This document shows positions 6,867 to 56,197 of a stretch of 64,000 nucleotides of DNA, piece by piece. This DNA comes from Devosia sp. MC521 (GTDB taxonomy: Bacteria; Pseudomonadota; Alphaproteobacteria; Rhizobiales; Devosiaceae), in assembly GCF_014127105.1 (NCBI RefSeq), contig NZ_CP059902.1:2820001-2884000 (forward strand). Reading direction: 5' to 3'. The position numbers were made by a program, and so were the translations under genes. The stretch's first letter is position 1, and the number at the start of each line of letters is the position of its first letter. The notes beneath the pieces were generated by a model that saw only the letters and a list, made by a program, of their open reading frames with translations, was not told where the DNA came from and ran no database searches.

Positions 6867-7019
6867 AGGTAACCTGCCCTATTACGCAACAAACCAGATA
6901 CGGGGCTGAAGCACACAATTGATTCCGTTACGGAAACAAAGAGTTAAACCTGCAGCAACTCCCAAGCGGATCGCATAGTCGTGAACGACCGTTAACCAGT
7001 TTAAGCTGATCCAGAGCTC

Positions 7020-7043
7020 AAAAATACCCTTCTTGGTATTTTT
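7020..7043. promoter_or_regulatory. Perfect inverted repeat between tamA and ydfG
   Basis: AAAAATACC, six-base spacer, GGTATTTTT: two perfect 9-bp arms. It lies 154 bp upstream of the tamA start and 109 bp upstream of the proposed ydfG start. The AT-rich arms and lack of a GC-rich stem fit an operator better than a terminator, but a weak terminator cannot be excluded. Confidence 0.4.
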
Positions 7044-7151
7044 CGTGGCATTCCTTGATCAGAGTGGCGCATGGGCAACGACGTTGACGCGCGCGGCATG
7101 GCGGTACAGCATAGCCACCACTCAACACTGAAATTCCTTCTAGGACCCGGT

Positions 7152-7928: not shown

Positions 7929-7939
7929 GTCGCACGAGG

Positions 7940-7978
7940 GCGCGCGGCTGCGGCCAAGTTTCCAGTGACGCCGCGCGC
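7940..7978 (+). terminator. Possible hairpin terminator after ydfG
   Basis: Perfect 9-bp arms GCGCGCGGC and GCCGCGCGC with a 21-base loop, just after the ydfG stop. It lacks a clear T-run, so it may be a weak terminator or only a structured spacer before the Rieske operon. Confidence 0.35.
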
Positions 7979-8019
7979 TTAGATTTGTATGATCACGGGG
8001 CAATAATGAGATAGGCCCC

Positions 8020-8916: not shown

Positions 8917-8985
8917 TCACGCCTCTCTTCCGAGACGCATTCGGCCTCCCCGTACGCCAGGGAGTGCGACGACTAAATCAAGATC

Positions 8986-10731: not shown

Positions 10732-10734
10732 CCC

Positions 10735-11385
10735 ATGGCCATCACGCTTTATGATTTCGAGCTTTCGGGCAACTGCTATAAAGTCCGCCTGCTGCTCAAC
10801 ATCCTGAACCAGCCTGCCGATATGCATCCGGTGGAATTCTTCCCCGGCAAGGAGCACAAGTCCGACTGGTTCTTGCGCCTCAATCCCTTCGGCCAGCTTC
10901 CGGTGCTGAAAGACGATGACCTCGTCCTTTCGGACTCAGGGGCAATCCTCGCCTATCTGGCCAAGAAATATGACACCACCGACCAATGGTTCCCGGACAC
11001 TCCTGCCGTCACCGCAGAAATCCTGCGTTGGCACTCGGTCGCCGATGACATCACCTCCACCAGCTCGGCAGCGCGTCTTGCCCTCGGCTATGGTTATGAT
11101 TTCAACATCGAAAAGGTTCAGGCCGGTGCTCACCGCATCTTCCGCCTGATGGACGAGCATTTGTGGTTCGGCGAACGCCAGGGCCGCGATTGGCTCTGCT
11201 CGCCATCCCACCCGACCACGGCCGACATCGCCTGCTTCCCTTATGTCATGCTTTCGGAAGAAGGCGGCATTTCCCGTCAGGACTATCCAGCGCTCCGCCG
11301 TTGGACCGACCGCGTCCGTCGCATACCCGGCTTCATGGTCATGTCAGGCATTTTCCCGGCCGGCAAGGCCAAGGAAAGCGCATAA
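10735..11385 (+). CDS. Glutathione S-transferase family protein
   Basis: 216 residues. The N-terminal thioredoxin-like domain includes LYDFELSGNCYKVRLLLN (a Ser/Cys-type active-site region), a cis-proline in FGQLPVL, and the glutathione-contacting D-S pair in LSDSGAILAYLAKKY. The helical C-terminal domain has the usual TTADIACFPYV segment. It starts 3 bases after the Rieske reductase and is surely cotranscribed with it, so it may act on a product or reactive intermediate of that oxygenase, such as ring opening, dehalogenation or isomerisation; which one cannot be told. Confidence 0.9.
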   Translation: MAITLYDFELSGNCYKVRLLLNILNQPADMHPVEFFPGKEHKSDWFLRLNPFGQLPVLKDDDLVLSDSGAILAYLAKKYDTTDQWFPDTPAVTAEILRWHSVADDITSTSSAARLALGYGYDFNIEKVQAGAHRIFRLMDEHLWFGERQGRDWLCSPSHPTTADIACFPYVMLSEEGGISRQDYPALRRWTDRVRRIPGFMVMSGIFPAGKAKESA

Positions 11386-11424
11386 ATCACCTTCAAATTT
11401 GCCCCTAGCGGGCAAAACAACCCG

Positions 11425-11447
11425 TGGCGGCTGGAAACCAGCCGCCA
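11425..11447 (+). terminator. Strong hairpin between gst and fabV
   Basis: TGGCGGCTGG, AAA, CCAGCCGCCA: perfect 10-bp arms and a 3-base loop, starting 40 bp after the GST stop. No T-run follows, so it may be a factor-assisted terminator, an RNA-stabilising hairpin, or a 5' element of fabV. Confidence 0.45.
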
Positions 11448-11486
11448 TAAACGCTATCAGCGTGGCAAGATCGAGGAGTTATTCTC

Positions 11487-12656
11487 ATGATTATCGAGCC
11501 CAAAATTCGCGGCTTTATCTGCACTACCGCTCACCCAACTGGTTGCGCCCGCAATGTGCAAAACCAGATTGATCACGTCACGATCAAGGGCGCTATCCCG
11601 TCAGATCGCAAGCGCGTTCTCGTGCTCGGCTGCTCCACGGGCTATGGCCTTGCCTCGCGCATCGTCACCACTTTCGGCTCTGATGCCGACACCGTTGGTG
11701 TTTCCTTCGAACGCGAGCCCGGTGAAGCCAAGCCAGCGTCGGCTGGCTGGTACAACAACCGTGCCTTCGAGAACCGCGCCAAGGCTGCTGGTCGCAAGGC
11801 CGTCACCATTGAAGGCGACGCCTTCTCGGACGCGGTAAAGGCTGAGACCATCGAAGCGATCAAGGCGAACTTGGGTCAGGTTGACCTCATCGTCTACTCG
11901 CTCGCTTCTCCAGTCCGCACCGACCCCAAGGACGGCGTCACCTACCGTTCGGCCATCAAGCCATACGGTTCGCAGGTCACCTCCAAGACGCTCAACACGG
12001 GCACTGGTGAAGTTTCTGAAATCACCGTTGAACCGGCGACCGAAGAAGAAGCTCAGGCGACCGTCAAGGTTATGGGCGGCGAAGACTGGGAACTCTGGAT
12101 TGCGGCGCTCGCCGAAGCTGGCGTTCTCGCTGATGGCTTCCGCACCCTCAACTACACCTATCTCGGCTCAGAGCTGACTTGGCCGATTTACCACAAAGGC
12201 ACTCTTGGCCGCGCTAAGGCTGACCTCGACCGTGCTGCAGCTGCCATCCGCGCCAGCCACGGCAAGGACTCGGCAAACGTTGTTGCGCTCAAGGCTGTTG
12301 TCACACAGGCAAGCTCGGCAATCCCCGTCGTTCCGCTCTATGGTACGCTCTTGATCAAGGTCGAGGACGAACTGGGCCTGGGCGAAGGCCCAATCCACCA
12401 GATCGATCGCCTCTTCCGCGAAAAGCTTCAGGGCGACGTTGCGCTGGACGACGAGAACCGCATTCGTGTTGACGATTGGGAACTCTCCGAAGCCATGCAG
12501 GCCGAACTCAAGAAGCGTTGGGCAGAACTCTCCACCGAGACCCTTGCCGATCTCGCGGACCTGCCGAAGTACCGTGAAGAGTTCATGCGCCTCTTCGGCT
12601 TTGCCGTTGGCGGCGTGGACTACTCCCAGGACGTTGATCCTCGGATCGTCGAGTAA
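11487..12656 (+). CDS. fabV: FabV, NADH-dependent trans-2-enoyl-ACP/CoA reductase
   Basis: 389 residues, close to the usual FabV length of about 400. The N-terminus MIIEPKIRGFICTTAHPTGC, the nucleotide-binding segment VLVLGCSTGYGLASR and the YSLASPVRT and AIKPYG segments are characteristic. FabV carries out the last step of fatty acid elongation and is insensitive to triclosan compared with FabI. The start has a good GAGGAG ribosome site 9 bases upstream, and a strong terminator follows the stop. It is transcribed alone; there is no link to the preceding oxygenase beyond strand. Confidence 0.93.
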   Translation: MIIEPKIRGFICTTAHPTGCARNVQNQIDHVTIKGAIPSDRKRVLVLGCSTGYGLASRIVTTFGSDADTVGVSFEREPGEAKPASAGWYNNRAFENRAKAAGRKAVTIEGDAFSDAVKAETIEAIKANLGQVDLIVYSLASPVRTDPKDGVTYRSAIKPYGSQVTSKTLNTGTGEVSEITVEPATEEEAQATVKVMGGEDWELWIAALAEAGVLADGFRTLNYTYLGSELTWPIYHKGTLGRAKADLDRAAAAIRASHGKDSANVVALKAVVTQASSAIPVVPLYGTLLIKVEDELGLGEGPIHQIDRLFREKLQGDVALDDENRIRVDDWELSEAMQAELKKRWAELSTETLADLADLPKYREEFMRLFGFAVGGVDYSQDVDPRIVE

Positions 12657-12666
12657 TCAAAGTTTA

Positions 12667-12690
12667 GGGGCGCTCCGGCGCCCCTTTTTT
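12667..12690 (+). terminator. Rho-independent terminator of fabV
   Basis: GGGGCGC, TCCG, GCGCCCC followed by six T residues, immediately after the fabV stop codon. The epmB stop codon from the other strand overlaps its end. Confidence 0.9.
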
Positions 12691-13822
12691 ATTGTTCAGA
12701 ATTTGGCATTTTGGGCGGATATTGATGCACATTGCCCTGCCAATCGGCCACTAAATGCCCCTGATCGGCCAATTGGGCCATAGAAACGGCCAAAGGAGAT
12801 TTCCCATGTCCACCGGGAATATCGAGCACGTAGGTCGGCTGGCACAGCCCCGATAACCGTCCGCGCAATTGCGCCACCAATTCCTGACCCCGCTCCACGG
12901 AAACCCGGAAATGCCCCGTGCCCGGCGCCAAGTCCGGGTGGTGTAAGTAGTAGGGTTTAATGCGGTTTTCGACAAAACCACGCATCAAAGCGGCGAGCGT
13001 ATCAAAGTCGTCATTGACCCCCGCCAAAAGCACGCTCTGGCTGACAAGAGCAACGCCACCTTCCACCAACCGGGCGAACGCGGTTTTGGCAACTGCCGTA
13101 AACTCACGCGGATGATTGGCATGCACCGCCAGATAGGTCGTCTTGCCCGAAGCCCTAAGCGCCGAAACCATCGCATCATCAACCCGTTCCGGCTCAACCA
13201 CCGGCACACGTGTATGAAATCTAACGATTTTTACGTGTTCAATCGGTGCCAGACGCTCCATCAAATCACGCAACCGGCGCGGCGAGAGCACCAGCGGATC
13301 GCCACCGGTAAGGATGACTTCCCAGATTTCCTCATGCTCAGCGATATAGGCAATCGCAGCGTCCAGCTCCGCTGGCGTCAGCGTCCCTAACCCCTGCGGC
13401 CCCACCATTTCGCGGCGGAAACAGAAGCGGCAATAGACCGGGCAGACATGCACAGCCTTGAGCAAAACACGGTCCGGATAGCGATGCACGATCCCTTCAA
13501 CCGGCGAATGCGCAAGATCGCCAATGGGATCGTCCCGCTCTTCCGGCGTGGTCGTAAGCTCTTCTACACGCGGCACAAATTGGCGGGCCATCGGGTCATT
13601 GGGATCGTTAGGGTCGATCAATGCCGCGACAGCAGGCGTAATGCCAATGGCATACTTATCCCCGACTGCATCCAGCCCTGTTACATTCTGAGCAAAACCT
13701 GCGGCCTGTAGTTCTGCAACCGACTTTATCGCGCGCGCAGGGCTACTCCCTCGCCCCTCAGGGGAGAGGGCTGGAGTGAGGGTTGAAACGCCGTCGGCAG
13801 GTACACTAGGCAAGGAGTTCAT
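12689..13822 (-). CDS. epmB: EpmB-type radical SAM lysine 2,3-aminomutase
   Basis: About 377 residues. The radical SAM motif C-x3-C-x2-C is CPVYCRFC, and the family segments GIVHRYPDRVLL, LTGGDPLVLS and KPYYLHHPDL are present. EpmB converts (S)-alpha-lysine to (R)-beta-lysine, the donor for EF-P modification. I place the start at the ATG at 13822, which overlaps the epmA stop as ATGA; the frame is open six codons further. The N-terminal 30 residues include LTPALSPEGRGS, which is encoded by a repetitive palindromic element (13741-13786) and is not part of the family fold. epmA lies just upstream and efp is divergent, so the whole pathway is here. Confidence 0.92.
   Translation of the reverse strand: MNSLPSVPADGVSTLTPALSPEGRGSSPARAIKSVAELQAAGFAQNVTGLDAVGDKYAIGITPAVAALIDPNDPNDPMARQFVPRVEELTTTPEERDDPIGDLAHSPVEGIVHRYPDRVLLKAVHVCPVYCRFCFRREMVGPQGLGTLTPAELDAAIAYIAEHEEIWEVILTGGDPLVLSPRRLRDLMERLAPIEHVKIVRFHTRVPVVEPERVDDAMVSALRASGKTTYLAVHANHPREFTAVAKTAFARLVEGGVALVSQSVLLAGVNDDFDTLAALMRGFVENRIKPYYLHHPDLAPGTGHFRVSVERGQELVAQLRGRLSGLCQPTYVLDIPGGHGKSPLAVSMAQLADQGHLVADWQGNVHQYPPKMPNSEQ
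13741..13786 (-). repeat. REP-like palindromic element inside the epmB coding region
   Basis: The segment reads, on the minus strand, CCTCACTCCAGCCCTCTCCC then CTGAGGGGCGAGGGAGTA. It contains the quasi-palindrome CTCTCCCCTGAGGGGCGAG and translates in frame to LTPALSPEGRGS. This sequence type is a widespread short interspersed repeat of Gram-negative genomes, usually found between genes. No second copy was seen in the window. Confidence 0.65.
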
Positions 13823-14877
13823 TCCGCCACAGGAGCCCACAAAACAGCATCGATGCGCTGGGCCCCCGTCGCCAGCATCACCACGCGATCAAAGCCAAGG
13901 GCTACACCCGAAGCTTCCGGCATAAAGGCCAATGCTGCTAGAAAGTCCTCGTCGATTGGATAGCGCTCACCATAGATGCGCGCTTTTTCGTTCATCTCAT
14001 CCTCAAAGCGTACACGCTGTTCAGCTGGGTCTGTCAGCTCGCCAAAGCCATTGGCAAGCTCCACACCACAAGCATAGACCTCGAACCGTTCAGACACACG
14101 CCTATCGCCCGGAACACGGCGCGCCAAAGCCGCCTCACAGGCCGGATAGCGATCAAGCACTGTCACCCGGCCATTGCCCAGTTCCGGTTCAACCTTCTCC
14201 ACGAGCACATGCGTAAAGAGGTAACTCCATGAGTTATCGTCAGGAATTGCCATGCCGACAGCCTTCATTTGCGCCGCAAGCTTTTCCCCGTCCGGTACTC
14301 CGTCTTCGTCCATGGTCGCTAAAAGATCGACACCAGCGAACTGCAAGAAAGCTTCGGCCACGCTGACACGTTCGGCGGGCAAGCGCGGATCGCAGGTTCT
14401 GCCCTTAAAGGCGAACTCAGCAATCCCGGTCGTTTCTGCTGCCAGTTTAATCAGCGCCACCGTGTCCTCAATGATGACATCATAAGTTTCGCCAACCCTA
14501 TACCACTCCAGCATGGTGAACTCGGGATGGTGGGTCGCAGAGCGTTCACGATTGCGCCAGACGTGCTGCAGGCTAGCTATGCGGCGCTCTCCCGCAGCCA
14601 GCAGTTTCTTCATGGTGAACTCGGGCGAGGTGTGCAGATACATGGTCCGCCCTTCCCCATCATTACCGATCATCTGCGTGCCAAATGCATGCAGGTGAGT
14701 CTCATTCCCCGGCGAGCGTTGCAGCCCCGGAGGATCGATCACAAGGAAGTCACGCTCGGCCATCCAAAGGCGCACAGCAGCATCGATCTTGGCCCGGCCA
14801 ATGAGCAGCGGGCGGCGGTCTGCATGGCGATCAGGGTGCCACCAGGGCGTTTCACCCGATGGAAATGGCTTGGTCAT
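13819..14877 (-). CDS. epmA: EpmA, EF-P lysine beta-lysyltransferase
   Basis: About 352 residues from the ATG at 14877 ([16 protein letters not shown]); the frame stays open upstream, but those residues are unrelated and would run into the efp leader. It is a class II lysyl-tRNA synthetase core without the anticodon-binding domain: motif 2 region [20 protein letters not shown], motif 3 [14 protein letters not shown], plus the [11 protein letters not shown] loop. EpmA attaches (R)-beta-lysine, made by EpmB, to a lysine of EF-P. It overlaps epmB by 4 bases and shares a 127-bp divergent promoter region with efp. Confidence 0.94.
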
Positions 14878-15004
14878 GGTGTTTCTTGCGGTCCGGTCTG
14901 GCGAAAAGGCGCAGAATATTGTATCCGGCGCTCCACAGAACATATTCCGGCGCCTGGATGGCATTGCCTCTAGACCGCGCCAGCGACACGAACAAGGAAT
15001 AATT

Positions 15005-15571
15005 ATGGTCAAGGTGATTGCCTCGTCCCTGCGTAAGGGCAACGTCGTCGAGCAGGACAACGCCCTTCACGTCGTCCTCACGGCAGAAAACGTCCACCCA
15101 GGTAAGGGCAATTCGGTGACCAACGTCACCATGCGCCGCATCTCGGACGGCGTTAAGGTTCTCGGCCGCTGGCGCACCGTTGAAATGGTGGAAAAGGCCG
15201 ACGTTGACGATCGTGAATACGATTACCTCTACTCGGATGGCGAAGGCCACCACTTCATGGAACCGACCACCTACGAACAGATCACCGTTGGTGACGACGT
15301 GATCGGCGACCAGAAGGCTTACCTTTCGGACGGCATGAAGGTTCACCTTCTGACCCACGAAGGCATCGCGCTCTCGATGGACCTGCCAATGCGCATGACC
15401 TTCGAAATCGTTGAGACTGAGCCGGTTGTTAAGGGCCAGACAGCTTCGTCTTCGTACAAGCCAGCAATCCTCAACAACGGCCTGCGTGTCATGGTCCCAC
15501 CGCACATCGACGCGGGCACCAAGATCGTCATCCTGACCGAAGACAATTCCTACGTTGAACGCGCGAAGTAA
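15005..15571 (+). CDS. efp: Elongation factor P
   Basis: 188 residues, the normal length for EF-P. The start is the ATG at 15005, with AAGGAA about 8 bases upstream; the open frame extends 72 codons further but that part overlaps epmA. The modification site is in HPGKGNS, with the lysine at position 34 as in E. coli. Domains I-III are intact, ending [12 protein letters not shown] relieves ribosome stalling at polyproline, and the beta-lysyl modification is supplied by the divergent epmA-epmB pair. A rho-independent terminator follows. Confidence 0.96.
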
Positions 15572-15596
15572 TCTTCGACGCGTCCGCTGGACATAA

Positions 15597-15624
15597 AAAC
15601 GGGCCCCTCAGGGCCCGTTTTTTT
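15597..15624. terminator. Bidirectional terminator between efp and the DUF2934 gene
   Basis: ACGGGCCC, CTCA, GGGCCCGT flanked by an A-run on the left and seven T residues on the right. It can end efp transcripts on the plus strand and the convergent small gene on the minus strand. Confidence 0.88.
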
Positions 15625-15844
15625 ATTTGTCGTCGATAGCGCTTTCGGCGGCATACCAGTGTGACGAAGATCGGCCAGGCGGGGTCCCTTCAGCCAGCCA
15701 ACGATCATAGGCGAGCTGCCGCTGATGCGCGCCCTTGGCCTTGAGCCAATAGTCCATGGCCTGCCCTTCCGGGCACCCATCCTGCTCCCAAAGAAAATAG
15801 GCTGTCTGACGAACTCGCTCCGCCATAACCGTATTTTTATGCAC
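15623..15844 (-). CDS. DUF2934 domain small protein
   Basis: 73 residues, or 67 if the internal ATG at 15826 (MAERVRQTAYFLWEQ) is used. The segment RVRQTAYFLWEQDGCPEGQAMDYWL is the DUF2934 signature (R-x3-A-Y-x-L-W-E-x2-G-x-P-x-G-x3-x-H/Y-W). The function is unknown; the family is common in Hyphomicrobiales as short stand-alone proteins. It is convergent with efp across a shared terminator. Confidence 0.82.
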   Translation of the reverse strand: MHKNTVMAERVRQTAYFLWEQDGCPEGQAMDYWLKAKGAHQRQLAYDRWLAEGTPPGRSSSHWYAAESAIDDK

Positions 15845-15929
15845 TTAGGCACCCACACCGTTGAAAGGTCACGTAATCTATCAACCGCGCGAGTGGCCCA
15901 CTTGTTCCGTACTAACTAAAGCGTGACCC

Positions 15930-16901
15930 TTAAGGCTGGAAGCGCTCTGTGAGCCACTTCATTTGCGCACGGTCCTGGAAAGGACCTCCGCCTTCGTGGT
16001 TGTTAAATTCATATTCCACGAGCGTTTTATCGCTGCCCGAGAAGGCCTTAAACGCCGCAAAAACGGTGGATGGTGGACAAATGTCGTCCATCATTCCAAC
16101 AGAGAACAGCGCCGCTGCCGAGCTGCGCCGAGCAAAATTGACCCCATCAAAATAACGCAGGGTATCAAACACCTGCGCGGTTTTTTCCCGATGCTGAGCA
16201 AGGAAACGCACGATTTCAAGATAGGGATCGCGCCCGGCCTGACGGACCGAACGCGGGAAATCGCAGAGGAACGGCACGTCCGGCATCACAGCTTTAACGC
16301 GAGGATCGAGCCCGGCCACAGCAATGGCAATACCACCGCCCTGCGAGCCACCGTTGACGGCTACGCGGGTTGGGTCAACGAAGTCTTGCCCAATCATCGC
16401 GTCGAGCGCCCGAACGCCGTCAGTAAAGACGCGGCGGTAGTAATAGTCGTTTTTGTCGAGCACGCCCTTGGTCATCATGCCCGGAATCTGGCTGGTCGAG
16501 CCGACAGGATCTGGCGTTGCCCCCATGCTCCAACTTGAGCCTTGTCCGCGTGTATCCATACGGAAATAAGCATAGCCAGATGCGGCCCAATGCAAGAGTT
16601 CATGAGGGAACCCCCGGCCACCGCCATAACCGACAAACTGCACCAGCAGCGGCAGTTTTTCTGGACGATGTTTCGGCAGCGCAAGCCACCCCTTTACCGG
16701 ATGCCCACCAAAGCCGGGAAAGGTCACATCAAAAACCTCCACCAGCTTGAGCGTTGTCTCAGCCGGGGTGATCACCACTTCCCCGCCCGCGGAGCGGGCC
16801 TCTGCCAGTGTGCTGTCCCAAAAGGCAGCAAAATCATCAGGCATCGTCACCTGGCTTTCATAGGCGTCGATAGCGGGGTGTTGCAGATCGGGAAAGGGCA
16901 C
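15930..16901 (-). CDS. Acetyl xylan esterase / cephalosporin-C deacetylase family (AXE1)
   Basis: 323 residues from the GTG at 16901, which has GGAG 8 bases upstream and gives the family's usual length. An ATG at 16997 would add 32 residues that look hydrophobic but overlap the upstream gene. Alpha/beta-hydrolase residues are visible: oxyanion segment QFVGYGGGRG, nucleophile serine in VNGGSQGGG, aspartate in GMMDDICPPS and histidine in NNHEGGG. AXE1 enzymes remove acetyl groups from xylan oligomers and other small esters and are normally cytoplasmic. The nearby UDP-xylose-type gene is 8 kb away and there is no operon link. Confidence 0.9.
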   Translation of the reverse strand: MPFPDLQHPAIDAYESQVTMPDDFAAFWDSTLAEARSAGGEVVITPAETTLKLVEVFDVTFPGFGGHPVKGWLALPKHRPEKLPLLVQFVGYGGGRGFPHELLHWAASGYAYFRMDTRGQGSSWSMGATPDPVGSTSQIPGMMTKGVLDKNDYYYRRVFTDGVRALDAMIGQDFVDPTRVAVNGGSQGGGIAIAVAGLDPRVKAVMPDVPFLCDFPRSVRQAGRDPYLEIVRFLAQHREKTAQVFDTLRYFDGVNFARRSSAAALFSVGMMDDICPPSTVFAAFKAFSGSDKTLVEYEFNNHEGGGPFQDRAQMKWLTERFQP

Positions 16902-16942
16902 TTTCAAAGCTCCGGCCAACAGGACAGCGCACGCAGCACAAA

Positions 16943-17371
16943 TCACTGCGCGCGGAATAGACTTCGATGATAGGCGATCATGGCCGTGCTTGGCCAAAAT
17001 TCTGCACTGTCAGGGAGAAACAATTTTCGGACGCCACTCGGCAGTGATCGCGCACTGCTATCCATGAGATCAGCGCGAGCAATAAAGGCCTCGAAAGCGT
17101 CGGATATCAGGACTAATCCCGATTGTAACAAGCGCCCGCTAGCGCGCTCAACCAGAACCGCATTCTCGGGATGAATACGGCCACCATGCTCCAAGGGCTG
17201 GAGGAAGAACACCGTCGGCTCAAGATTTTTGTTTGAAAGATCCGCGCCGCTCACCGCACAGCGGAAACGGTATTGTTCCATCAAGCGGTTAGCGAGGGTG
17301 GCGATCTCTGAATAGTCAAAGAACGCTTGGGCCGCCTCTCCAAAGCCGCTGCTGGAATCGTCATCTGCCAT
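16943..17371 (-). CDS. HNH-like protein with degenerate catalytic site
   Basis: 142 residues of unknown function. The pattern YRFRCAVSGADL, then LEPTVFFLQPLEHGGRIHPENAVLVERASGRLLQSGLVLI, then WPSTAMIAYHR resembles the C-terminal HNH domain of DNA-associated proteins, where 'RCAVTG...EAAHIRP...N(G)I.L....H..FD.G...I.....L.P......R.......YHR' is usual. Here the catalytic histidine region (AHIRP) reads FFLQP, and the second cysteine of the typical zinc pair is absent, so a nuclease activity is unlikely. It lies 41 bp upstream of the esterase on the same strand and may be cotranscribed. The family assignment is tentative. Confidence 0.6.
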   Translation of the reverse strand: MADDDSSSGFGEAAQAFFDYSEIATLANRLMEQYRFRCAVSGADLSNKNLEPTVFFLQPLEHGGRIHPENAVLVERASGRLLQSGLVLISDAFEAFIARADLMDSSARSLPSGVRKLFLPDSAEFWPSTAMIAYHRSLFRAQ

Positions 17372-17898
17372 GGGTACGCGCCTCTAGGGCAAGAACCTAC
17401 GCAAATTTTACAGGCAGTAAAGTCCTCAGTTTTGTCCCGACGCAGAGAAAAACCGCGAGTTCTGGCCCGCACACAGAGCCTATGTGAGCAATGAGTGGCA
17501 ATAGGGGAACGCTAAAGCAATGGGAGCGCTCACACCGAGCGCATCAACAGTGCGGCGGCGACGGCGACGGGTGTTGGATATCCGGCCACCACCAATGTCG
17601 CTGCCACCGCACCACACGTATCGCTACGACCGCGCTGACCAAAGCCAGCACCGCCTGCGGCGACTGCCTCGACCTTCCCAATTGTAAAATGCAATCGGGG
17701 CCCCACGGTCGAGGACTGCAGCTAGGCTATCGAATAAACGAATATTCTGCCAAGCCAATTCGAGATAATTTTGGAATAACAGCCGGTTAATAAGATGTAC
17801 GCCAAAAAGGGGAAGGTATTTTTCGGGATATTTGAGTGCCGAAAGCCCCCCTCCCGTGCGCGGATATATCCTACTCAACCAGCCCTATGTCGGGCGCG
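17372..17898. other. Intergenic region without a convincing gene
   Basis: 527 bp between the HNH-like gene and the nucleoside hydrolase. Open frames on both strands here give low-complexity, arginine- or proline-rich translations with no family resemblance. One short plus-strand frame at 17520-17687, preceded by GGGGAA, would encode MGALTPSASTV, a run of six arginines, then a Pro/His/Arg-rich tail; it could be a small basic protein, but the support is weak. No tRNA or repeat was recognised. Confidence 0.5.
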
Positions 17899-18849
17899 TT
17901 AGCGCCCGACTGTGTCCATAAAGTGTTGCAGCACCTTATCGGCCTGAATTTCCGTGCAGATCGTGTTGGAGCGACGACCAGTCCACGCCGGGTGACCACC
18001 CTTGCGGCTATCGGGCCACTGCGCCGTCTGACCTGCGGCTAGACCATCGCGGATCACCACAATCGGACCAGTACGGGTTTCAAACCATTCTGGGAACAAA
18101 GCGTAGGTCACTGCAACCATGTCGTGGCCAACCACGCCATCGATGTCCATCACGGCCTTGTAGAAATCAGCATAAAGCTGAGACACGTCACGGATGAACT
18201 TGCCGTTGTCGCCGCCCTTTTCAGCAACCACGTCAAGCATCTTATCGGTAACGATAATATCGTGCGTGACATCGAGCCCGATGACATGCACCGGCCATTC
18301 TGCCGCAAACATTTCGTCGGCTGCAACCGGGTCACCGCAGATATTGGCTTCGGCCAGCGGGGTCATATTGCCCGAACGGCCCTTATAGCCGAACGCGCCG
18401 CCCATGATGATGACCTGTTTGGTCAGCTTGGCCACTTCTGGGTCCTGACGCAGCGCCAGAGCCAGATTGGTCATACGGCCAACAGCAATAATGGTCACTT
18501 CGCCTGGATACTTGCGCACGGTATCGATGATGAACTGGGTCGCCGAAACCGGCGCCAGACCAGATTCGTCGACTTCCGGCAGTTCCACATCACCCAAGCC
18601 GTTCACACCGTGAATAGCGGCAGGTTCTTCTTTGTAGACGCCGTCCAGCGTTTCGCCGGCGCCGCGCGCGACCGGAGCAGAAATGCCAAACATTTCACGC
18701 AGTACCAGCGCATTACGGGTCGTCGTCGCAATGTCGGCATTGCCCACAACAGTGGTAATGCCCAGAAGTTCGAGTTGTGGCAGCTTGCTGATATACAGCA
18801 GCGCCATAGCATCATCGATGCCTGGATCGGTGTCGAAAATGACCTTCAT
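17899..18849 (-). CDS. Inosine-uridine-type nucleoside hydrolase
   Basis: 316 residues from the ATG at 18849 (MKVIFDTDPGIDDAMALL). The open frame extends upstream but only the internal ATG matches the family. The N-terminal DTDPGIDDA motif supplies the calcium-binding aspartates, and the GNADIATTTRN, IMGGAFGYKGR and EANICGDPVAAD segments are typical. These cytoplasmic enzymes cleave the N-glycosidic bond of ribonucleosides. The gene is divergent from the F420-dependent dehydrogenase across a 127-bp region that holds a 24-bp palindrome, so it may share a regulator with the F420 cassette. Confidence 0.92.
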   Translation of the reverse strand: MKVIFDTDPGIDDAMALLYISKLPQLELLGITTVVGNADIATTTRNALVLREMFGISAPVARGAGETLDGVYKEEPAAIHGVNGLGDVELPEVDESGLAPVSATQFIIDTVRKYPGEVTIIAVGRMTNLALALRQDPEVAKLTKQVIIMGGAFGYKGRSGNMTPLAEANICGDPVAADEMFAAEWPVHVIGLDVTHDIIVTDKMLDVVAEKGGDNGKFIRDVSQLYADFYKAVMDIDGVVGHDMVAVTYALFPEWFETRTGPIVVIRDGLAAGQTAQWPDSRKGGHPAWTGRRSNTICTEIQADKVLQHFMDTVGR

Positions 18850-18928: not shown

Positions 18929-18952
18929 ATTTTTGACCAAACGATCAAAAAT
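18929..18952. promoter_or_regulatory. Palindromic operator upstream of fgd (and of the nucleoside hydrolase)
   Basis: 24 bp with outer arms ATTTTTGA and TCAAAAAT and a further C/G match inside; 9 of 12 symmetric positions pair. The half site is TTTGAYC. It starts 24 bp before the fgd start codon and 80 bp from the nucleoside hydrolase start. A second site of the same length and symmetry, with the same TTTGAYCA half site, is at 23705-23728. Confidence 0.65.
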
Positions 18953-18976: not shown

Positions 18977-19981
18977 ATGATGCGTTTCGGGTATAAGGCT
19001 TCGGCAGAACAGTTCGGGCCAAGCACGCTTCTCGATTTTGCTGTCGCGGCTGAAAAGGCCGGATTTGACTCCGTCTTCGTGTCTGACCATTTCCAACCGT
19101 GGAAACACACGGACGGCCACGCACCGTTCGCTCCGGGCTGGATGTCCGCGGTTCTCGCTCGCACCGAGCGCATTATCTTGGGCACCTCGGTGCTCACCCC
19201 CACCTTCCGCTTGCACCCGACCGTTGTCGCCCATGCCTTTGGCACTATGGGGGCGATGTTCCCCGGACGCGTCATTCTCGGGGTTGGCACGGGTGAAGGT
19301 CTCAATGAAGTTCCCGCCACCGGCATGGAATGGCCAGAGCTGAAAGAACGTTCGGCCCGCCTACGCGAAGCGGTCAAACTCATCCGCACCCTCTGGACCG
19401 AAGATCGCGTCAGTTTTGAGGGCGAGTATTACAAGACCGTCAACGCCACCATCTACGACAAGCCTGCCGAACCTGTGCCGATTTACATCGCAGCTGGCGG
19501 TCCGCTGAATGCCAAATATGCCGGCCGCGCTGGCGATGGGTTCATCTGCACCTCCGGCAAGGGTGCAGATCTCTACACCAAAGAACTGCTGCCCAATGTT
19601 GAAATTGGTCGAGGTGAAAGCGAACGCGCGGCAAAGCCCTTTGAGCGCATGATCGAGGTGAAAGTCTCCTTTGATCCAGACGCGAACCGCGCTCTAAATG
19701 ATTGCCGCCATTGGGCCGCTCTCGCCCTCTCCGCTGAAGAAAAGCATTCGGTGCAAGATGCCGAGGAGATGGAACGCCTCGCAGATGCCCTGCCGATTGA
19801 GCGTGTCGCTAAGCGCTGGATTGTGTCTTCCGACCCCGACGAGCATGTCGAGCAGATTAAAACCTATATCGACTATGGGTTTGATCATCTGGTCTTCCAC
19901 GCCCCCGGCCCAGACCAGCATCGCTTCTTGGCCCTCTATTCGAAAGAAATCCTCCCTCGGCTGCGGAACCTGGCAGGCTAA
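18977..19981 (+). CDS. fgd: F420-dependent glucose-6-phosphate dehydrogenase
   Basis: 334 residues, close to the 336 of mycobacterial FGD1, and the two align over their whole length from memory: GYKASAEQF at the start, [53 protein letters not shown], and ...[10 protein letters not shown]...HLVFHAPG. The residues known to matter in FGD1 (H40, W44 and E109) are present as H38, W42 and E107. The enzyme oxidises glucose-6-phosphate and reduces F420 to F420H2. The start has GGGAGGG just upstream. The cofE gene follows after 2 bases, so it is the first gene of the cassette. Confidence 0.95.
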
Positions 19982-19983
19982 AA

Positions 19984-20880
19984 ATGGCAAGAATTTCGGC
20001 TTGGGGGGTCCCCGGAATTCCTGAAATCATCAAGGGCGACGACCTCGTCGCTCTCATCGGGAAAGCATTGATCGAGCAGGCCATCGCAGAGCCAGATTGT
20101 GCCGTGCAGCCTGGCGACATCTTGGTCGTCACCTCCAAAATCGTATCGAAAGCCGAAGGCATGCAGGTGCCCGCGCAAGACCGTGAAAAGGCTATCGCCG
20201 AAGATACAGTGCGCATCGTTGCCGAACGTATTCACCCCGGCGGCGTGACTCGGATTGTCGAAACCCGTCAAGGTCTCGTCATGGCGGCCGCTGGCATCGA
20301 CATGTCCAATGTCCCTGAGGGCATAGCCCTTCGCCTGCCTACCGACCCTGATGCCTCCGCCCGCGCCCTCTGTGCGGGCCTTCGCGAACGGTTTGGCTTT
20401 GATCTCGGCCTCATTATCACCGATACCATCGGCCGCCCTTGGCGTGTTGGCCAGACAGACCAAGCCATTGGCGCGGCTGGATTACAGCTCACCGACGATT
20501 TGCGGGGAGCCAATGACGCCAATGGGCGTCCGCTGCACGTCACTCAGGCCGTCATCGCCGATGAGATCGCTGGAGCTGCCGATTTGGTGAAAGGCAAAAC
20601 CACCAATATTCCCGTCGCCGTCGTGCGCGGCCTTGGCCACTTCGTCCGCGATTTGGACGCGCCGGGCGCGCGAACCCTTACCCGAACGGGGGACGATGAT
20701 ATGTTCCGCTTTGGCTCCGCCGAAGCCTATCGGCTTGGCTATCAGGCCGCTCTGGCAGAGCAAAACACGCCGCCTCGTCCGAGGCGCAGAGCGGGTTCGG
20801 CGGAACCGGATGCAGCGGCCTCGCAAAGCCCACCGAAAGCAGAAAACAGGTCCAGCTCCCACAAGGGAAATGCACTCTAG
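19984..20880 (+). CDS. cofE: CofE, coenzyme F420-0:L-glutamate ligase
   Basis: 298 residues. The N-terminal 250 residues follow CofE closely: [89 protein letters not shown], and [24 protein letters not shown]. The enzyme adds glutamate residues to F420-0 using GTP. It is the stand-alone form, without the C-terminal nitroreductase-like domain of mycobacterial FbiB; the last 40 residues are a Pro/Arg/Ser-rich tail of low complexity. No cofC, cofD or deazaflavin (FO) synthase gene is in the window. Confidence 0.95.
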
Positions 20881-20907
20881 CTCACCGCTCTCCGCAGGAA
20901 CCGTCGC

Positions 20908-21837
20908 ATGCGTACACTTATGTTTATTGCCACTGCGGCCGTGTTCATCGTCCCGGCCCACGCCCAGACGCTCTATCCCCTCACCGTCGAAAACTGCGGC
21001 GTGACCATCACAATTCCGCAAGCTCCCGAGCGCGTCGTTACCATCAAGTCGACCGCAACCGAGCTTCTACTCTCGCTTGGCTTGGGAGACAAAATCGTTG
21101 GTGTCGGTTTTCAAGATGCTCCGCTCCCCGCGCATCTCTCTGACACGCAGCTCAATGTCCTTGCTGATACGCTGCCCAGTCAAGAAGTGGTGCTCGAAGT
21201 CGAACCAGACTTTATCTATGGCGGCTGGGAGAGCAATTTCACTGCCGGTGGCGCGGGTGAGCGCTCGACTCTTACTAAGCTTGGTGTCGCCAGCTATGTC
21301 GCCCCCGCAGCCTGCCGGAGCATTGCTCCACCCAAACTGACCTTCGACGACCTCTTTGCTGAGATCACCGAAATGGGCAGCATTTTTAATGCCGCGTCAG
21401 CAGCCAATGCTCTGATTGCAGAACAAAAGTCGACCCTCGCGAGCATTACGCCGGACACACGCGGCCTAACAGCCGTCTGGTATTCCTCTGCGACGAAAAC
21501 CCCTTATGTCGGAGCCGGCAACAATGCACCCGCCATGATGATGGAAGCTCTCGGCCTCACCAATATCTATGCCGGCATCCCCGAAGGCTGGACCTCTGTA
21601 GGCTGGGAAGCAGTTGCTGATGCCAACCCGGACATCATTATCCTGGTTGAAACCCCTTGGAACACTGCCGAGCAGAAGAGAACTTTGCTGGCGGAGAACC
21701 CGGTGACCAAGGAAATGGATGCGGTCAAGAACACCCGCTACCTCACTCTGCCCTTCCCCGCTGCGGAAGCTGGTGTGCGGACCATCCCCGCTATTGTTGA
21801 CCTGTCTAAGCAGCTGTCGAACCTCAGCATACCATGA
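20908..21837 (+). CDS. Periplasmic binding protein of probable F420-0 ABC importer
   Basis: 309 residues with a Sec signal peptide (about residues 1-19, ending PAHA) and the two-lobed fold of BtuF/FepB-type binding proteins: N-terminal PERVVTI..TATELLLSLGLGDKIVGVG and ...ANPDIIILVETPWN near the C-terminus. It is not a lipoprotein. Similar cassettes, with a FecCD permease and ATPase beside cofE and sometimes fgd, were proposed to import F420-0 in actinobacteria (TIGR03868/03869/03873, recalled from memory). The substrate is inferred from context; a corrinoid or siderophore is the alternative, but no such genes are nearby. Confidence 0.85.
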   Translation: MRTLMFIATAAVFIVPAHAQTLYPLTVENCGVTITIPQAPERVVTIKSTATELLLSLGLGDKIVGVGFQDAPLPAHLSDTQLNVLADTLPSQEVVLEVEPDFIYGGWESNFTAGGAGERSTLTKLGVASYVAPAACRSIAPPKLTFDDLFAEITEMGSIFNAASAANALIAEQKSTLASITPDTRGLTAVWYSSATKTPYVGAGNNAPAMMMEALGLTNIYAGIPEGWTSVGWEAVADANPDIIILVETPWNTAEQKRTLLAENPVTKEMDAVKNTRYLTLPFPAAEAGVRTIPAIVDLSKQLSNLSIP

Positions 21838-21898
21838 CTTTTTGGCCGCAAGTAAATGTCGTCAGCGCATCGGAAGAGAAGAACACAGAGGCGGCTCC

Positions 21899-22900
21899 AT
21901 GACCCGAGTGTTGCTCCCACTTCTCTTTATGCTGACTCTCTTGGCAGCTATTGTCGCCATCACCATCGGCCCAGCCGACATCACCCCAAGTGATGCGCTT
22001 GCCGTTATCGCCTATAAGCTCGGCCTTCTGCCCGAGAGCCCACTTTCAGCCCTCCGCACCGCCATTATCTGGGACCTTCGCCTGCCCCGCGTGCTTGCCG
22101 CCATAGGCACCGGAGCGGGCCTAGCCTTGGCAGGAACAGTGATGCAGGCCCTCACCCGCAATCCATTGGCTGACCCCTATCTCTTGGGCCTCAGCTCGGG
22201 CGCCGCGCTTGGCGCTGTTATCTTTATGCTGCTGGGGTGGACGCTCGTTCTGTCCTTCGGTGCGTTCATCGGCAGTCTTGCCGCTCTAACCCTCGCGCTC
22301 ACCATCTCCAAACTGCTTGGCGGCACCACACCGAGCCGCGCCATTCTGGCGGGCATCTGCATCTCGGCCCTAGCAACCGCTGCCACCTCATTCCTCATCT
22401 TCTGGTCCGCCACAGGCGATAGCTATCGCGAAATCCTAAGCTGGCTGATGGGCTCCCTTGCCGGGACCACGTGGCCCGAAACCGGTCTCATTTTCGCAGT
22501 GCTCGTCGTGTCCGTCCCAATCATTCTGCATGCTGGTAAAGCGCTGGACGCCTTTGCCTTTGGCGATATCGCTGCCGCCAGCCTTGGCATTGATGTGCCG
22601 CGCTTGCGCTTTTCCTTGCTAGCCGTCACAGCCCTCCTCACCGGCATCATGGTGTCGATTGGCGGCGCTATCGGTTTTGTAGGTCTTGTTGTTCCCCATG
22701 TCGTGCGCCTTGCAACCGGGCCACGCCACCGTCTTTTGTTGCCCCATGCCGCCCTCTGCGGCGCAATTTTCATGCTGTGCACCGACACGGCCGCCCGTAC
22801 CCTCTTCGAGCCGCGCGAGCTGCCGGTGGGCATTATTACCGCTCTTCTCGGCGCCCCGATCTTCCTAGTCGTGCTCATGCGCTATCGGAGGCTGACATGA
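21899..22900 (+). CDS. FecCD-type permease of probable F420-0 ABC importer
   Basis: 333 residues from the ATG at 21899 (MTRVLLPLLFML); the frame is open 60 codons further, overlapping the binding-protein gene, and is not used. It has about nine to ten hydrophobic helices and FecCD-family segments: LRLPRVLAAIGTGAGLALAGTVMQALTRNPLADP, LGLSSGAALGAV, GGAIGFVGLVVPHVVR and the C-terminal ELPVGIITALLGAPIFLVVLMR. It would work as a homodimer with the ATPase, whose start codon overlaps its stop (ATGA). Confidence 0.88.
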   Translation: MTRVLLPLLFMLTLLAAIVAITIGPADITPSDALAVIAYKLGLLPESPLSALRTAIIWDLRLPRVLAAIGTGAGLALAGTVMQALTRNPLADPYLLGLSSGAALGAVIFMLLGWTLVLSFGAFIGSLAALTLALTISKLLGGTTPSRAILAGICISALATAATSFLIFWSATGDSYREILSWLMGSLAGTTWPETGLIFAVLVVSVPIILHAGKALDAFAFGDIAAASLGIDVPRLRFSLLAVTALLTGIMVSIGGAIGFVGLVVPHVVRLATGPRHRLLLPHAALCGAIFMLCTDTAARTLFEPRELPVGIITALLGAPIFLVVLMRYRRLT

Positions 22901-23676
22901 GTTTGGACGTTCGCCAGCTCACTGTTGCCCATGGCGGCAAAACCATTGTTTCCAATGCTAGCTTGACAGCGCCCGCCGGAGCGATCACCGGCCTCATCGG
23001 CCCCAATGGTGCGGGCAAGTCAACACTGCTCACTGCCATCCTCGGCCTTACCCCTGCACGCGGCACCGTTGGCTTTGAGGGCTCTGACCTTCACGCCATG
23101 CCGCGACACGAGCGCGCCAAGATTGCTGCCTTTGTGGAGCAGTCGGTTTCAACTGAAGAGCGGCTCACCGTTGCCGATGTCGTTGCACTCGGGCGCATTC
23201 CACATCAGCCCGCTTGGGCAAGCGCCCTTTCACCTCAAGACGAACTCATTGTCGGCGCTGCGCTAAGCGCAACCGGAATGACGGCGTTCTCCGCTCAGAG
23301 ATTTCATACTCTTTCAGGCGGGGAGCAGCAGCGCGTGCTGATCTCACGTGCCCTAGCCCAAGCACCGCGCCTCCTGCTGCTTGATGAGCCGACCAGTCAC
23401 CTCGATATCAAGGCACAATTGCAACTGCTGACACTGCTGCGGCGCCTAGCGGAGAGCGGCATGACAATTGTCTTGGCAATTCATGATCTCAACCACGCCG
23501 TCCGCTTCTGCGACCATCTGGTCGTCATGGACCATAGTAAAGTTATCACCCAAGGCAGACCCAAAGAAATCATCACCGATGATCTTCTGCGCACAGTCTA
23601 CGGGGTGAAAGCACATCTTCAAAATGGCGATCACATCAGCGTCTTTTTTGAAGATGTCTCCGACAGTTGGAATTGA
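22897..23676 (+). CDS. ATPase of probable F420-0 ABC importer
   Basis: 259 residues from the ATG at 22897, overlapping the permease stop as ATGA. Walker A GPNGAGKST, signature LSGGEQQR and Walker B LLLLDEP are all intact, followed by the switch histidine in LAIHDLNHA. It resembles FecE/BtuD-type ATPases of cobalamin and siderophore uptake. It ends the five-gene operon fgd-cofE-binding protein-permease-ATPase; a second operator and another F420-type gene follow. Confidence 0.9.
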   Translation: MSLDVRQLTVAHGGKTIVSNASLTAPAGAITGLIGPNGAGKSTLLTAILGLTPARGTVGFEGSDLHAMPRHERAKIAAFVEQSVSTEERLTVADVVALGRIPHQPAWASALSPQDELIVGAALSATGMTAFSAQRFHTLSGGEQQRVLISRALAQAPRLLLLDEPTSHLDIKAQLQLLTLLRRLAESGMTIVLAIHDLNHAVRFCDHLVVMDHSKVITQGRPKEIITDDLLRTVYGVKAHLQNGDHISVFFEDVSDSWN

Positions 23677-23704
23677 GATTGACAAACCACAATTAGAGCA
23701 TGAA

Positions 23705-23728
23705 AAATTTGATCATCTGGTCAAATTT
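23705..23728. promoter_or_regulatory. Second palindromic operator of the F420 region
   Basis: 24 bp with arms AAATTTGA and TCAAATTT plus two more matching inner pairs; 10 of 12 symmetric positions pair. The half site TTTGATCA/TGGTCAAA matches that of the fgd operator at 18929-18952 with identical overall spacing. It lies 28 bp upstream of the luciferase-like gene at 23757. Confidence 0.65.
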
Positions 23729-23756
23729 ATTGCTGACAGGGAGCGCGGGGGAATAA

Positions 23757-24758
23757 ATGGAATTTGGCATTACATTTAAGGGCTTTATCGAACACGAGCG
23801 GGCACGATATCTGGTCCGTGCGGCGGAATATGCCGGGTTTTCCTACTGCTGGTTTTACGACAGCCACATCCTCTGGCGCGATTGCTACGCCGCTATTGCC
23901 ATGTGCATGGAACACACAACGGACATGCGCTTCGGCCCACTGGTGACCAATCCGGACGTGCGCGACTGGTCCGTCGCTGCCTCAATTTTTGGTTCTCTCG
24001 CCAAACAGTCCGGCGGTCGGTTCGACCTCGCCGTTGGCCGTGGTGACAGCTCCATGCGCGTCATGGGCAAAAAGCCCGCCACCCTCGCCCGCGTTGCCGA
24101 ATTCATCGACAAAACAAAGGCTATGGTGCGTGGCGAAGAAGTTCACTACGGCGAAATCCCAGCGGCTGTGAAGTTTCCGTGGGCGGTCGGCCATGACATG
24201 CCGAGCTGGATCGCTGCTTATGGTCCGCTGGCCCTCAAGACCGCTGGCGAAAGCGCCGACGGCGTTGTCTTACAGATTGCCGACCCCGGCCTCTGCAAGT
24301 GGTTTACCGACCAGTGCATCGACGCTGGCAAGGCCGCAGGCAGAGACATGAGCAACTACCGCTCCATGGCCGCTGCCCCGGCCTATTTCGGCGACAAGAA
24401 GCGCGCTATCGAGAAGGTCAAATGGTTCCCAGCGATGGTCGGCAACCACGTCGCCGACATCGTCGAAAAATATGGCTCTGATAGCGACAAAGTCCCGGCA
24501 AGTCTGACCAGCTACATCGAAAAGCGCCGCGGCTACGACTATTCCAAGCATGGTCAAGCCGATAACCCATTCCTCGACTTCATCTCCGATGACGTCGTTG
24601 AGAGCTTTTGCGTGCTCGGAGAGCCCGACGACCACATCGCCAAGATCCGCAAACTGGAAGACGCTGGCGTCACCCAGTTCAACATCTATCTCGACAGCGG
24701 TGATGAAGAAGAAATCATCGCCAACTACGGCCGTCACGTCATCCCGGCTTTCCGCTAA
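23757..24758 (+). CDS. Luciferase-like (LLM) F420-type oxidoreductase
   Basis: 333 residues of the bacterial luciferase-like monooxygenase fold: MEFGITFKGF, WFYDSHILWRD, RFGPLVTNPDVRD, GSLAKQSGGRFDLAVGRGDSS (equivalent of the phosphate-binding loop), WIAAYGPLALKTAGESADGVVLQ, and the C-terminal FCVLGEPDDHI. It resembles the LLM subfamily TIGR03842 (CPS_4261-like). The family contains both F420- and FMN-dependent proteins; F420 use is inferred from the cassette. It may be a separate transcription unit because an operator copy lies directly upstream, 81 bp after the importer ATPase. The substrate is unknown. Confidence 0.8.
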   Translation: MEFGITFKGFIEHERARYLVRAAEYAGFSYCWFYDSHILWRDCYAAIAMCMEHTTDMRFGPLVTNPDVRDWSVAASIFGSLAKQSGGRFDLAVGRGDSSMRVMGKKPATLARVAEFIDKTKAMVRGEEVHYGEIPAAVKFPWAVGHDMPSWIAAYGPLALKTAGESADGVVLQIADPGLCKWFTDQCIDAGKAAGRDMSNYRSMAAAPAYFGDKKRAIEKVKWFPAMVGNHVADIVEKYGSDSDKVPASLTSYIEKRRGYDYSKHGQADNPFLDFISDDVVESFCVLGEPDDHIAKIRKLEDAGVTQFNIYLDSGDEEEIIANYGRHVIPAFR

Positions 24759-56143: not shown

Positions 56144-56197
56144 GCATATATTTCAGTGATGTCTTTCAACATCGTGCATCACAGGAAGTGATGTAAA

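What the first reader, a model, noticed from the sequence alone, without database searches (positions are those of the whole stretch)
18977..24758. F420-0 scavenging cassette in an alphaproteobacterium
Seen: fgd, cofE and a FecCD-type binding protein-permease-ATPase set in one operon (gaps 2, 27 and 61 bp and one ATGA overlap), then a second luciferase-like oxidoreductase. FGD matches mycobacterial FGD1 over its whole length with the active-site His, Trp and Glu conserved; CofE is full length. No gene for FO synthesis or CofC/CofD is here. Known: the same gene set (TIGR03868/03869/03873 with cofE and FGD, recalled from the TIGRFAM descriptions) was used to propose import of F420-0 in actinobacteria that cannot make it. 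Inference: this bacterium imports a deazaflavin precursor made by neighbours, adds the glutamate tail itself and uses the cofactor. If the rest of the genome lacks cofG/H, cofC and cofD, this is scavenging of F420 across an outer membrane, and the cassette was probably acquired from an actinobacterium.
Basis: partly seen in the sequence, partly recalled or inferred. Interest (0 to 1): 0.9.

Follow-up and report, generated by a model that had tools for sequence, protein, structure and literature searches.

The report
F420-precursor uptake operon in Devosia
Soil bacteria of the genus Devosia appear unable to make the redox cofactor F420 and instead carry a conserved gene set that would import an almost finished form released by other microbes, complete it and use it, like a vitamin.

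Summary
The cassette is as described: fgd, cofE, a FecCD-type importer, then a luciferase-like oxidoreductase (LLM). The genome (one contig, 3.78 Mb, read as Devosia) has no CofD, CofH or CofC over cut-off, nor has any of the 75 Devosia genomes searched. Importer and FGD occur in the same 60 of 75; the LLM in 59 of those 60 and in none of the other 15. New here: (1) an 18-bp palindrome precedes the LLM in 20 of 20 Devosia loci and fgd in 19, tying both to one control. (2) The same LLM (70-71%) follows complete F420 synthesis operons in two Rhodobacterales plasmids; in Devosia an importer stands where synthesis genes would be. (3) The cassette is mosaic: importer and CofE group with Micrococcales, FGD and LLM with alphaproteobacteria. 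(4) Of 50 actinobacterial carriers searched, 49 have CofE, 33 CofD and 5 CofH, so the family may carry FO in some hosts and F420-0 in others; Devosia, without CofD, would need F420-0. Best reading: uptake and use of F420-0 made by neighbours. That was already a proposed annotation in actinobacteria; transport is unproven and the direction of gene transfer unresolved.

The parts
18932..18949 (.). palindromic operator-like site TTTGACCAAACGATCAAA, 27 nt before fgd
   Evidence: a site of the same pattern lies before fgd in 19 of 20 Devosia loci
18977..19981 (+). fgd, F420-dependent glucose-6-phosphate dehydrogenase
   Evidence: TIGR03554 505 bits over cut-off 420; aligned to 5LXE and 3B4Y
19984..20880 (+). 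cofE, F420-0:L-glutamate ligase; ligase domain only
   Evidence: TIGR01916 212 bits over cut-off 181; only PF01996
20908..21837 (+). periplasmic substrate-binding protein of the putative F420-0 importer
   Evidence: TIGR03868 387.6 bits, just under 392.4; nearest structure 4MLZ by sequence and by fold, TM 0.90 (query) and 0.93 (target)
21899..22900 (+). FecCD-type permease
   Evidence: TIGR03869 417.5 bits, under 437.4; PF01032
22897..23676 (+). ATPase subunit, ATGA overlap with the permease
   Evidence: TIGR03873 292.8 bits, under 372.4; start read (the scans used 22894, one codon early)
23679..23708 (+). promoter-like pair TTGACA-18-AAAAAT before the LLM gene
   Evidence: 10 of 12 matches; 3 such sites found in the region, 2.4 expected, so weak alone
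23708..23725 (.). second copy of the operator-like site, TTTGATCATCTGGTCAAA, 31 nt before the LLM gene
   Evidence: a site of the same pattern lies before the LLM in 20 of 20 Devosia loci
23757..24758 (+). LLM oxidoreductase, TIGR03842 family, likely F420H2-using client
   Evidence: TIGR03842 488 bits over 295; 59 of 75 Devosia genomes, all of them importer carriers

Best explanation
The operon is an F420 salvage-and-use module. Proposed course: F420-0, a small deazaflavin of about 0.5 kDa released by F420 makers, crosses the outer membrane (inferred: through porins; no dedicated receptor was found in the flanks that were scanned), is caught by the periplasmic binding protein and pumped in by the permease and ATPase (inferred from family and linkage). 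CofE adds the glutamate tail (inferred from the family). FGD reduces F420 with glucose-6-phosphate, and the TIGR03842 LLM enzyme uses F420H2 on an unknown substrate (both inferred). A regulator not yet identified would switch both transcription units through the shared palindrome. Shown here: no known synthesis genes over cut-off, fixed gene content, shared palindromes, and the mosaic kinship of the genes. Not shown: transport, substrate and regulation.
For: Own genome and 74 congeners: CofD 0 of 75 at E 0.001, CofH 0 of 75 at E 0.001, CofC 0 of 75 over cut-off (26 of 75 have weak partial matches of about 20-30 bits, most inside frames of about 460 aa; own genome 21.9 bits). In 14 control genomes each of these searches is over cut-off in 3 (which 3 is not stated; three F420-making archaea are among those that ring). 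Two order-mates are picked out by CofD and their loci hold cofG, cofH, cofD and cofE. Importer and FGD occur in the same 60 of 75 genomes, the LLM in 59 of those 60 (missing in one 55%-complete genome) and in 0 of the other 15. cofE lies within 1.5 kb of the SBP gene in 30 of 30 loci. Shared palindrome: LLM 20 of 20, fgd 19 of 20; where the LLM stands in front of fgd (L050) only the front copy exists; 40 sites in 360 kb against 0 in each of five simulations. Two Rhodobacterales plasmids have cofG-cofH-cofD-cofC-cofE-npdG followed by the same LLM. Of 50 actinobacterial carriers searched, 49 have CofE but only 5 CofH.
Against: No binding or uptake data exist in these results. The three transporter proteins of the window fall below the curated cut-offs of their families. 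33 of 50 actinobacterial carriers have CofD and 5 of them also CofH, so the importer is not tied strictly to lack of synthesis, and F420-0 is not the only possible cargo. Co-occurrence of linked genes within one genus is not independent evidence. The palindrome pattern was derived from the window and loosened after seeing other loci, and one more 1-mismatch site lies elsewhere in the window (46026).
Confidence: 0.77

Rival explanations
1. The importer brings in FO, and an unrecognised enzyme pair in place of CofC and CofD turns it into F420-0.
For: 28 of 50 actinobacterial carriers have CofD but no CofH, which fits FO import by the same family; cofD lies in the fetched importer stretch in 9 of 75 actinobacterial loci. 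FO is stated to be present in the supernatant of an F420-producing symbiont (PMC11104420, passage).
Against: CofD has no match in 75 Devosia genomes and CofC none over cut-off.
Confidence: 0.08
2. The importer takes up finished F420 with its glutamate tail; CofE only extends it.
For: CofE enzymes can extend tails (recalled); nothing in the sequence fixes the tail length of the cargo.
Against: Tailed F420 is larger than the usual porin limit (recalled); no receptor domain was found in the flanking frames that were scanned (10 long frames chosen from 27); cofE would hardly be so tightly linked.
Confidence: 0.07
3. The transporter carries an iron chelate, haem or cobalamin and merely sits beside F420 genes.
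For: The fold is shared with haem, siderophore and B12 binding proteins; FecCD permeases are broad; 5 of 50 actinobacterial carriers have both CofD and CofH.
Against: Importer and FGD are both present in the same 60 genomes and both absent from the same 15, CofE is in 49 of 50 actinobacterial carriers, and no other source of F420 was found.
Confidence: 0.06
4. Devosia makes F420 by a non-homologous route and the importer is an extra.
For: Profile searches cannot exclude unrelated enzymes; CofG was not searched apart.
Against: No partial pathway is left: CofH, CofD and CofC are all missing over cut-off in 75 genomes.
Confidence: 0.02

Closest known systems
Putative F420-0 ABC importer of actinobacteria (NCBIfam TIGR03868, TIGR03869, TIGR03873)
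   Same: Same three genes in one cluster, in many loci near cofE and in some near fgd; in 50 carriers SBP 48-57% and in 49 of them permease 51-61% identical to the window; same fold as 4MLZ from Jonesia denitrificans.
   Different: Gram-negative host; fgd and the client LLM are of alphaproteobacterial kind; shared palindromes; scores below the curated cut-offs.
De novo F420 operon of Rhodobacterales (Paracoccus alcaliphilus, Leisingera plasmids)
   Same: cofE, an F420-reducing enzyme and the same TIGR03842 LLM (70-71% identity) in one gene run.
   Different: There cofG, cofH, cofD and cofC supply the cofactor; in Devosia an importer stands in, and fgd is present where npdG is there.
F420-dependent glucose-6-phosphate dehydrogenase (FGD1; 3B4Y, 5LXE)
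   Same: Nearly full-length match, active-site stretches kept.
   Different: In the tree it groups with the FGD of a Hyphomicrobiales F420 maker, G028, and a second FGD of G084 (89/100).
BtuCDF-type vitamin B12 importers
   Same: Same transporter class; salvage of a cofactor.
   Different: Permease scores 241 bits for BtuC against 417 for TIGR03869.

Membership tests
F420-0 ABC importer, TIGR03868/TIGR03869/TIGR03873 | each subunit scores over the curated family cut-off | tested here: not met
   387.6 of 392.4, 417.5 of 437.4, 292.8 of 372.4 bits. The SBP of 57 of 75 Devosia genomes does pass; permease and ATPase of the others were not scored. I therefore file it as a Devosiaceae variant.
F420-0 ABC importer, TIGR03868/TIGR03869/TIGR03873 | three-gene cassette linked to F420 genes | tested here: met
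   20 of 20 Devosia loci
F420-0 ABC importer, TIGR03868/TIGR03869/TIGR03873 | genome lacks F420 synthesis except cofE (from the recalled family description) | tested here: met
   0 of 75 for CofD, CofH and CofC over cut-off; in actinobacteria 17 of 50 carriers lack both CofD and CofH
F420-0 ABC importer, TIGR03868/TIGR03869/TIGR03873 | binds and transports F420-0 | not testable with these tools
   no assay; 4MLZ is titled simply as a periplasmic binding protein
FGD, TIGR03554 | equivalog score and active-site stretches | tested here: met
   505 bits over 420; alignment to 3B4Y and 5LXE
CofE, TIGR01916 | equivalog score | tested here: met
   212 bits over 181
TIGR03842 LLM | family score | tested here: met
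   488 bits over 295
TIGR03842 LLM | uses F420 and not FMN | tested here: inconclusive
   only context: gene run with F420 genes in two Rhodobacterales plasmids and co-occurrence in Devosia
de novo F420 pathway | CofH, CofD and CofC present | tested here: not met

The most novel reading that the evidence does not exclude
F420-0 is a shared soil vitamin: a widespread Gram-negative genus is an F420 auxotroph in which the synthesis block of an F420 operon has been replaced by an importer of actinobacterial kind, the importer family carries FO or F420-0 according to the host's gene set, and the palindrome is the operator of a regulator that senses the imported deazaflavin or F420 status, which would be the first F420-responsive regulon known to me.
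Probability: 0.35. Interest if true: 0.9.

Novelty: new variant of a known kind. Interest (0 to 1): 0.77.

Why it matters
F420 is usually treated as something a cell makes or lacks. A review of the field, searched by term (PMC8498797), has no occurrence of 'scaveng', 'uptake' or 'cross-feed'; its one mention of an ABC transporter is a possible exporter in an endosymbiont. If Devosia lives on imported F420-0, F420 joins B12 as a cofactor traded between species, counts of F420 users based on synthesis genes miss most of a genus, and the importer gives a genetic handle on it. The actinobacterial carriers with CofD but no CofH suggest a second trade, in FO. The shared palindrome gives a way to list further F420-using genes in Devosia.

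Tried and rejected
Acquisition of the whole cassette from an actinobacterium: not supported, since FGD and LLM trees put those two genes with alphaproteobacteria. Nesting of Devosiaceae inside actinobacteria: the quick SBP tree suggests it at 83%, but the careful tree of SBP plus permease does not reject all actinobacterial rows as one clade (p-AU 0.57), so I do not claim a direction. A known RNA element near the cassette: none at gathering score; the only Rfam matches in the window are two tRNAs. An outer-membrane receptor in the flanks: ten long frames chosen from 27 in the Devosia loci gave no TonB-receptor domain, and two of the ten matched no family; the other 17, several of which I took for antisense frames, were not scanned, nor was the rest of the genome. 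Plasmid carriage of the importer: no record reaches 60% identity; the 30 best listed of 1308 are 32-36% identical. Kin elsewhere in Alphaproteobacteria: 1 of 289 sampled genomes at E 1e-70, the window's own. A first palindrome pattern (TTGA-N6-TCAA) had the wrong spacing and found nothing; the pattern used was set after seeing the palindromes listed. Papers: none of the titles listed by searches (12 of 21 listed), 93 and 94 is about F420 import, and 67 and 93 found no paper; the library holds open-licence papers only. Two papers that probably treat distribution (Selengut and Haft 2010; Ney 2017) are not held and are only recalled.
Full report
1. What is there. Six genes on the + strand, 18977-24758: fgd, cofE, a substrate-binding protein (SBP), a FecCD permease, an ATPase, and after an 80-bp gap an LLM-class oxidoreductase. 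FGD, CofE and the LLM pass the curated cut-offs of TIGR03554, TIGR01916 and TIGR03842. The three transporter proteins have the F420-0 importer families as best NCBIfam match but fall short of their cut-offs (387.6 of 392.4; 417.5 of 437.4; 292.8 of 372.4). CofE has only the ligase domain, without the reductase domain of actinobacterial FbiB (FbiB recalled). The SBP model (mean pLDDT 90.3) matches 4MLZ, titled as a periplasmic binding protein of Jonesia denitrificans (TM 0.90 query, 0.93 target, 46% identity).

2. The genome and the genus. The window lies in a genome of one 3,780,495-base contig (99.94% complete). In 75 genomes of the genus: CofD 0 of 75 at E 0.001, CofH 0 of 75 at E 0.001, CofC 0 of 75 over cut-off, with weak partial matches in 26 of 75 (about 20-30 bits, most in frames of about 460 aa, which I take for other nucleotidyltransferases). 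CofG was not searched apart. Controls: each of the three searches is over cut-off in 3 of 14 control genomes (the calls do not say which; Methanocaldococcus, Haloferax and Methanosarcina are among those that ring), and also rings below cut-off in others. Order-mates G028 and G038 are picked out by CofD, and their loci hold cofG, cofH, cofD and cofE.

3. Co-occurrence. SBP at E 1e-70 or better: 60 of 75 (57 over cut-off). FGD at 1e-100: 60 of 75. Read side by side, the 15 genomes without SBP are the 15 without FGD. LLM at 1e-80: 59 of 75, all among the 60; the exception, G080, is 55% complete. Of these 59, by my reading of the coordinates have the LLM downstream of fgd on the same contig, 12 have it upstream (starts about 1.1-1.2 kb apart), and 3 have it on another contig of a fragmented assembly. 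The LLM is also the most conserved protein of the set (89-95% to the window in 20 loci; FGD 80-90%, CofE 66-83%, permease 67-76%, SBP 56-71%, ATPase 52-66%). These genes are linked and the genomes related, so the counts are not independent events. Beyond the genus, nine genomes of two sister genera also have the SBP over cut-off.

4. A shared palindrome. TTTGAYC-N4-GRTCAAA lies 27 nt before fgd (18932-18949) and 31 nt before the LLM (23708-23725). In 20 Devosia loci (L034-L053, chosen by me from the 60 carriers) it precedes the LLM in 20 and fgd in 19 (one of these with a mismatch); the exception, L050, has the LLM in front of fgd and one site before the LLM. In all 40 sites with at most one mismatch occur in these 360 kb; five first-order Markov simulations of the same loci gave 0 each. 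Five loci of sister genera (L153-L156, L158) have the site before the LLM exactly; before the first gene it is exact in one and has one mismatch in four; L153 has one further 1-mismatch site. It is absent from the six actinobacterial loci tested, both Rhodobacterales plasmids, both maker loci, two weak-paralogue loci (L159, L160) and the two second cassettes L157 and L166. In the window one more 1-mismatch site lies at 46026, far from the cassette. The pattern was drawn from the window (5 strand-wise matches with one mismatch allowed, 0.13 expected) and its spacer loosened, so the statistics are post hoc; the repeat at the same place in many genomes is the stronger argument. In the window the LLM copy overlaps the end of a promoter-like pair, as a repressor site would; promoter matches there are no more frequent than chance.

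5. The LLM and the operon it resembles. A protein search of plasmids finds the LLM at 70-71% identity in Leisingera and Paracoccus alcaliphilus. In the two records read, it is the gene after cofG-cofH-cofD-cofC-cofE-npdG. G028, a Hyphomicrobiales maker by NCBI-like kinship ('same order'), has an FGD 67% identical to that of the window between cofD and cofG/H. So the Devosia set looks like an alphaproteobacterial F420 operon in which the synthesis block is replaced by an importer. This is inference from content, not a traced event.

6. Mosaic origin. The SBPs of the main Devosiaceae cassette form one clade (SH-aLRT 100) among Micrococcales (quick tree). Their CofE proteins form one clade (99) inside a clade (100) of 41 rows made of Micrococcales and Devosiaceae, apart from the CofE of alphaproteobacterial makers (37-42% identity). 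Devosia FGD groups with the G028 FGD and a second FGD of G084 (89/100, not starred), not with Micrococcales FGD. The LLM groups with the Rhodobacterales makers (100); actinobacterial LLMs near importers are only 40-43% identical to the window. In sister genus g254 the fgd place holds another LLM, best described as TIGR03557 subfamily, which is 59-75% identical to the LLM beside cofE in nine of the ten actinobacterial clusters compared (72-75% in seven of them, not found in L100). This suggests that g254 keeps the older arrangement and that Devosia swapped that gene for fgd. Direction between phyla is not resolved: the AU test leaves all actinobacterial rows as one possible clade (p 0.57).

7. 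Actinobacterial carriers. The genome-contig scan found 376 encoding stretches and kept the best 80: 75 actinobacterial (73 placed in Micrococcales) and 5 alphaproteobacterial. The query alignment had the Jonesia SBP first, so it favours actinobacteria. CofE over cut-off in 49 of 50, CofD in 33 of 50, CofH in 5 of 50 at E 1e-20, three over cut-off. Thus 28 have CofD without CofH, 17 neither, 5 both. In 9 of the 75 loci cofD lies in the fetched importer stretch, and no cofG or cofH was found in any of the 80 stretches, while both were found in the maker loci L168 and L169. CofD state changes at least six times on the SBP tree. Either the importer accepts both FO and F420-0, or its cargo has changed several times. 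Most of these genomes are drafts and their completeness is not given, so single absences are weak; 28 of 33 is harder to explain so.

8. Second cassettes. G396 has a second importer (L157) with its own cofE, an LLM and npdG (TIGR01915 195 bits over 150), grouping with Occultella on a long branch. G084 has a second FGD, CofE and SBP in another cluster. Importer plus CofE plus an F420-reducing enzyme therefore occurs in more than one arrangement.

9. Literature. Review PMC8498797: passages only; its table marks alphaproteobacterial Fgd with a question mark, and a passage says predicted alphaproteobacterial producers encode Fgd and Fno. PMC11104420: passages; it says that FO is present in the supernatant of its symbiont. 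Other papers: search listings only. The actinobacterial proposal for these families is recalled from TIGRFAM descriptions; one search shows the names ('putative F420-0 ABC transporter'). The porin limit, the size of F420-0 and the FGD active-site roles are recalled.

10. Verdict. A well supported prediction of F420-0 salvage in a Gram-negative genus: a variant of a proposed but, as far as I know, untested actinobacterial system, with a new operon design and a new candidate operator.

Noticed in passing
L056-L134 (actinobacterial loci): 28 of 50 importer carriers searched have CofD but no CofH, which suggests FO uptake.
   Followed up: partly
L157 (G396), 2556-8934: A second F420 cassette with npdG instead of fgd, nearest to Occultella by SBP.
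   Followed up: partly
L166 (G084), 4547-18776: A second FGD, CofE and SBP beside what looks like a peptide-type ABC transporter and catabolic genes (family names by eye); possibly an F420-dependent breakdown cluster.
   Followed up: partly
L040, 11879-14158: LLM domain fused to a berberine-bridge-type FAD oxidase, with the palindrome 107 nt upstream.
   Followed up: partly
L159, L160, L161, L162, L163, L164, L165: A weaker SBP paralogue (242-269 bits to TIGR03868) with a permease and ATPase beside it in Devosiaceae; substrate unknown.
   Followed up: no
L153-L155, L158 (genus g254): In the fgd place an LLM of actinobacterial kind (the L154 copy scanned: TIGR03557), so the F420-reducing step may use another donor.
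   Followed up: partly
A1 and A2 alignments of the SBP: Two invariant cysteines, one near the N-terminus (NCG) and one mid-chain (AAC in the window), perhaps a disulfide.
   Followed up: no
15 of 75 Devosia genomes (e.g. G020, G065, G090): These lack importer, FGD and LLM together at the cut-offs used; whether by loss or by never having had them was not tested.
   Followed up: no
window 56067-56274: Two tRNA-Arg (acg) genes close together on the - strand.
   Followed up: no
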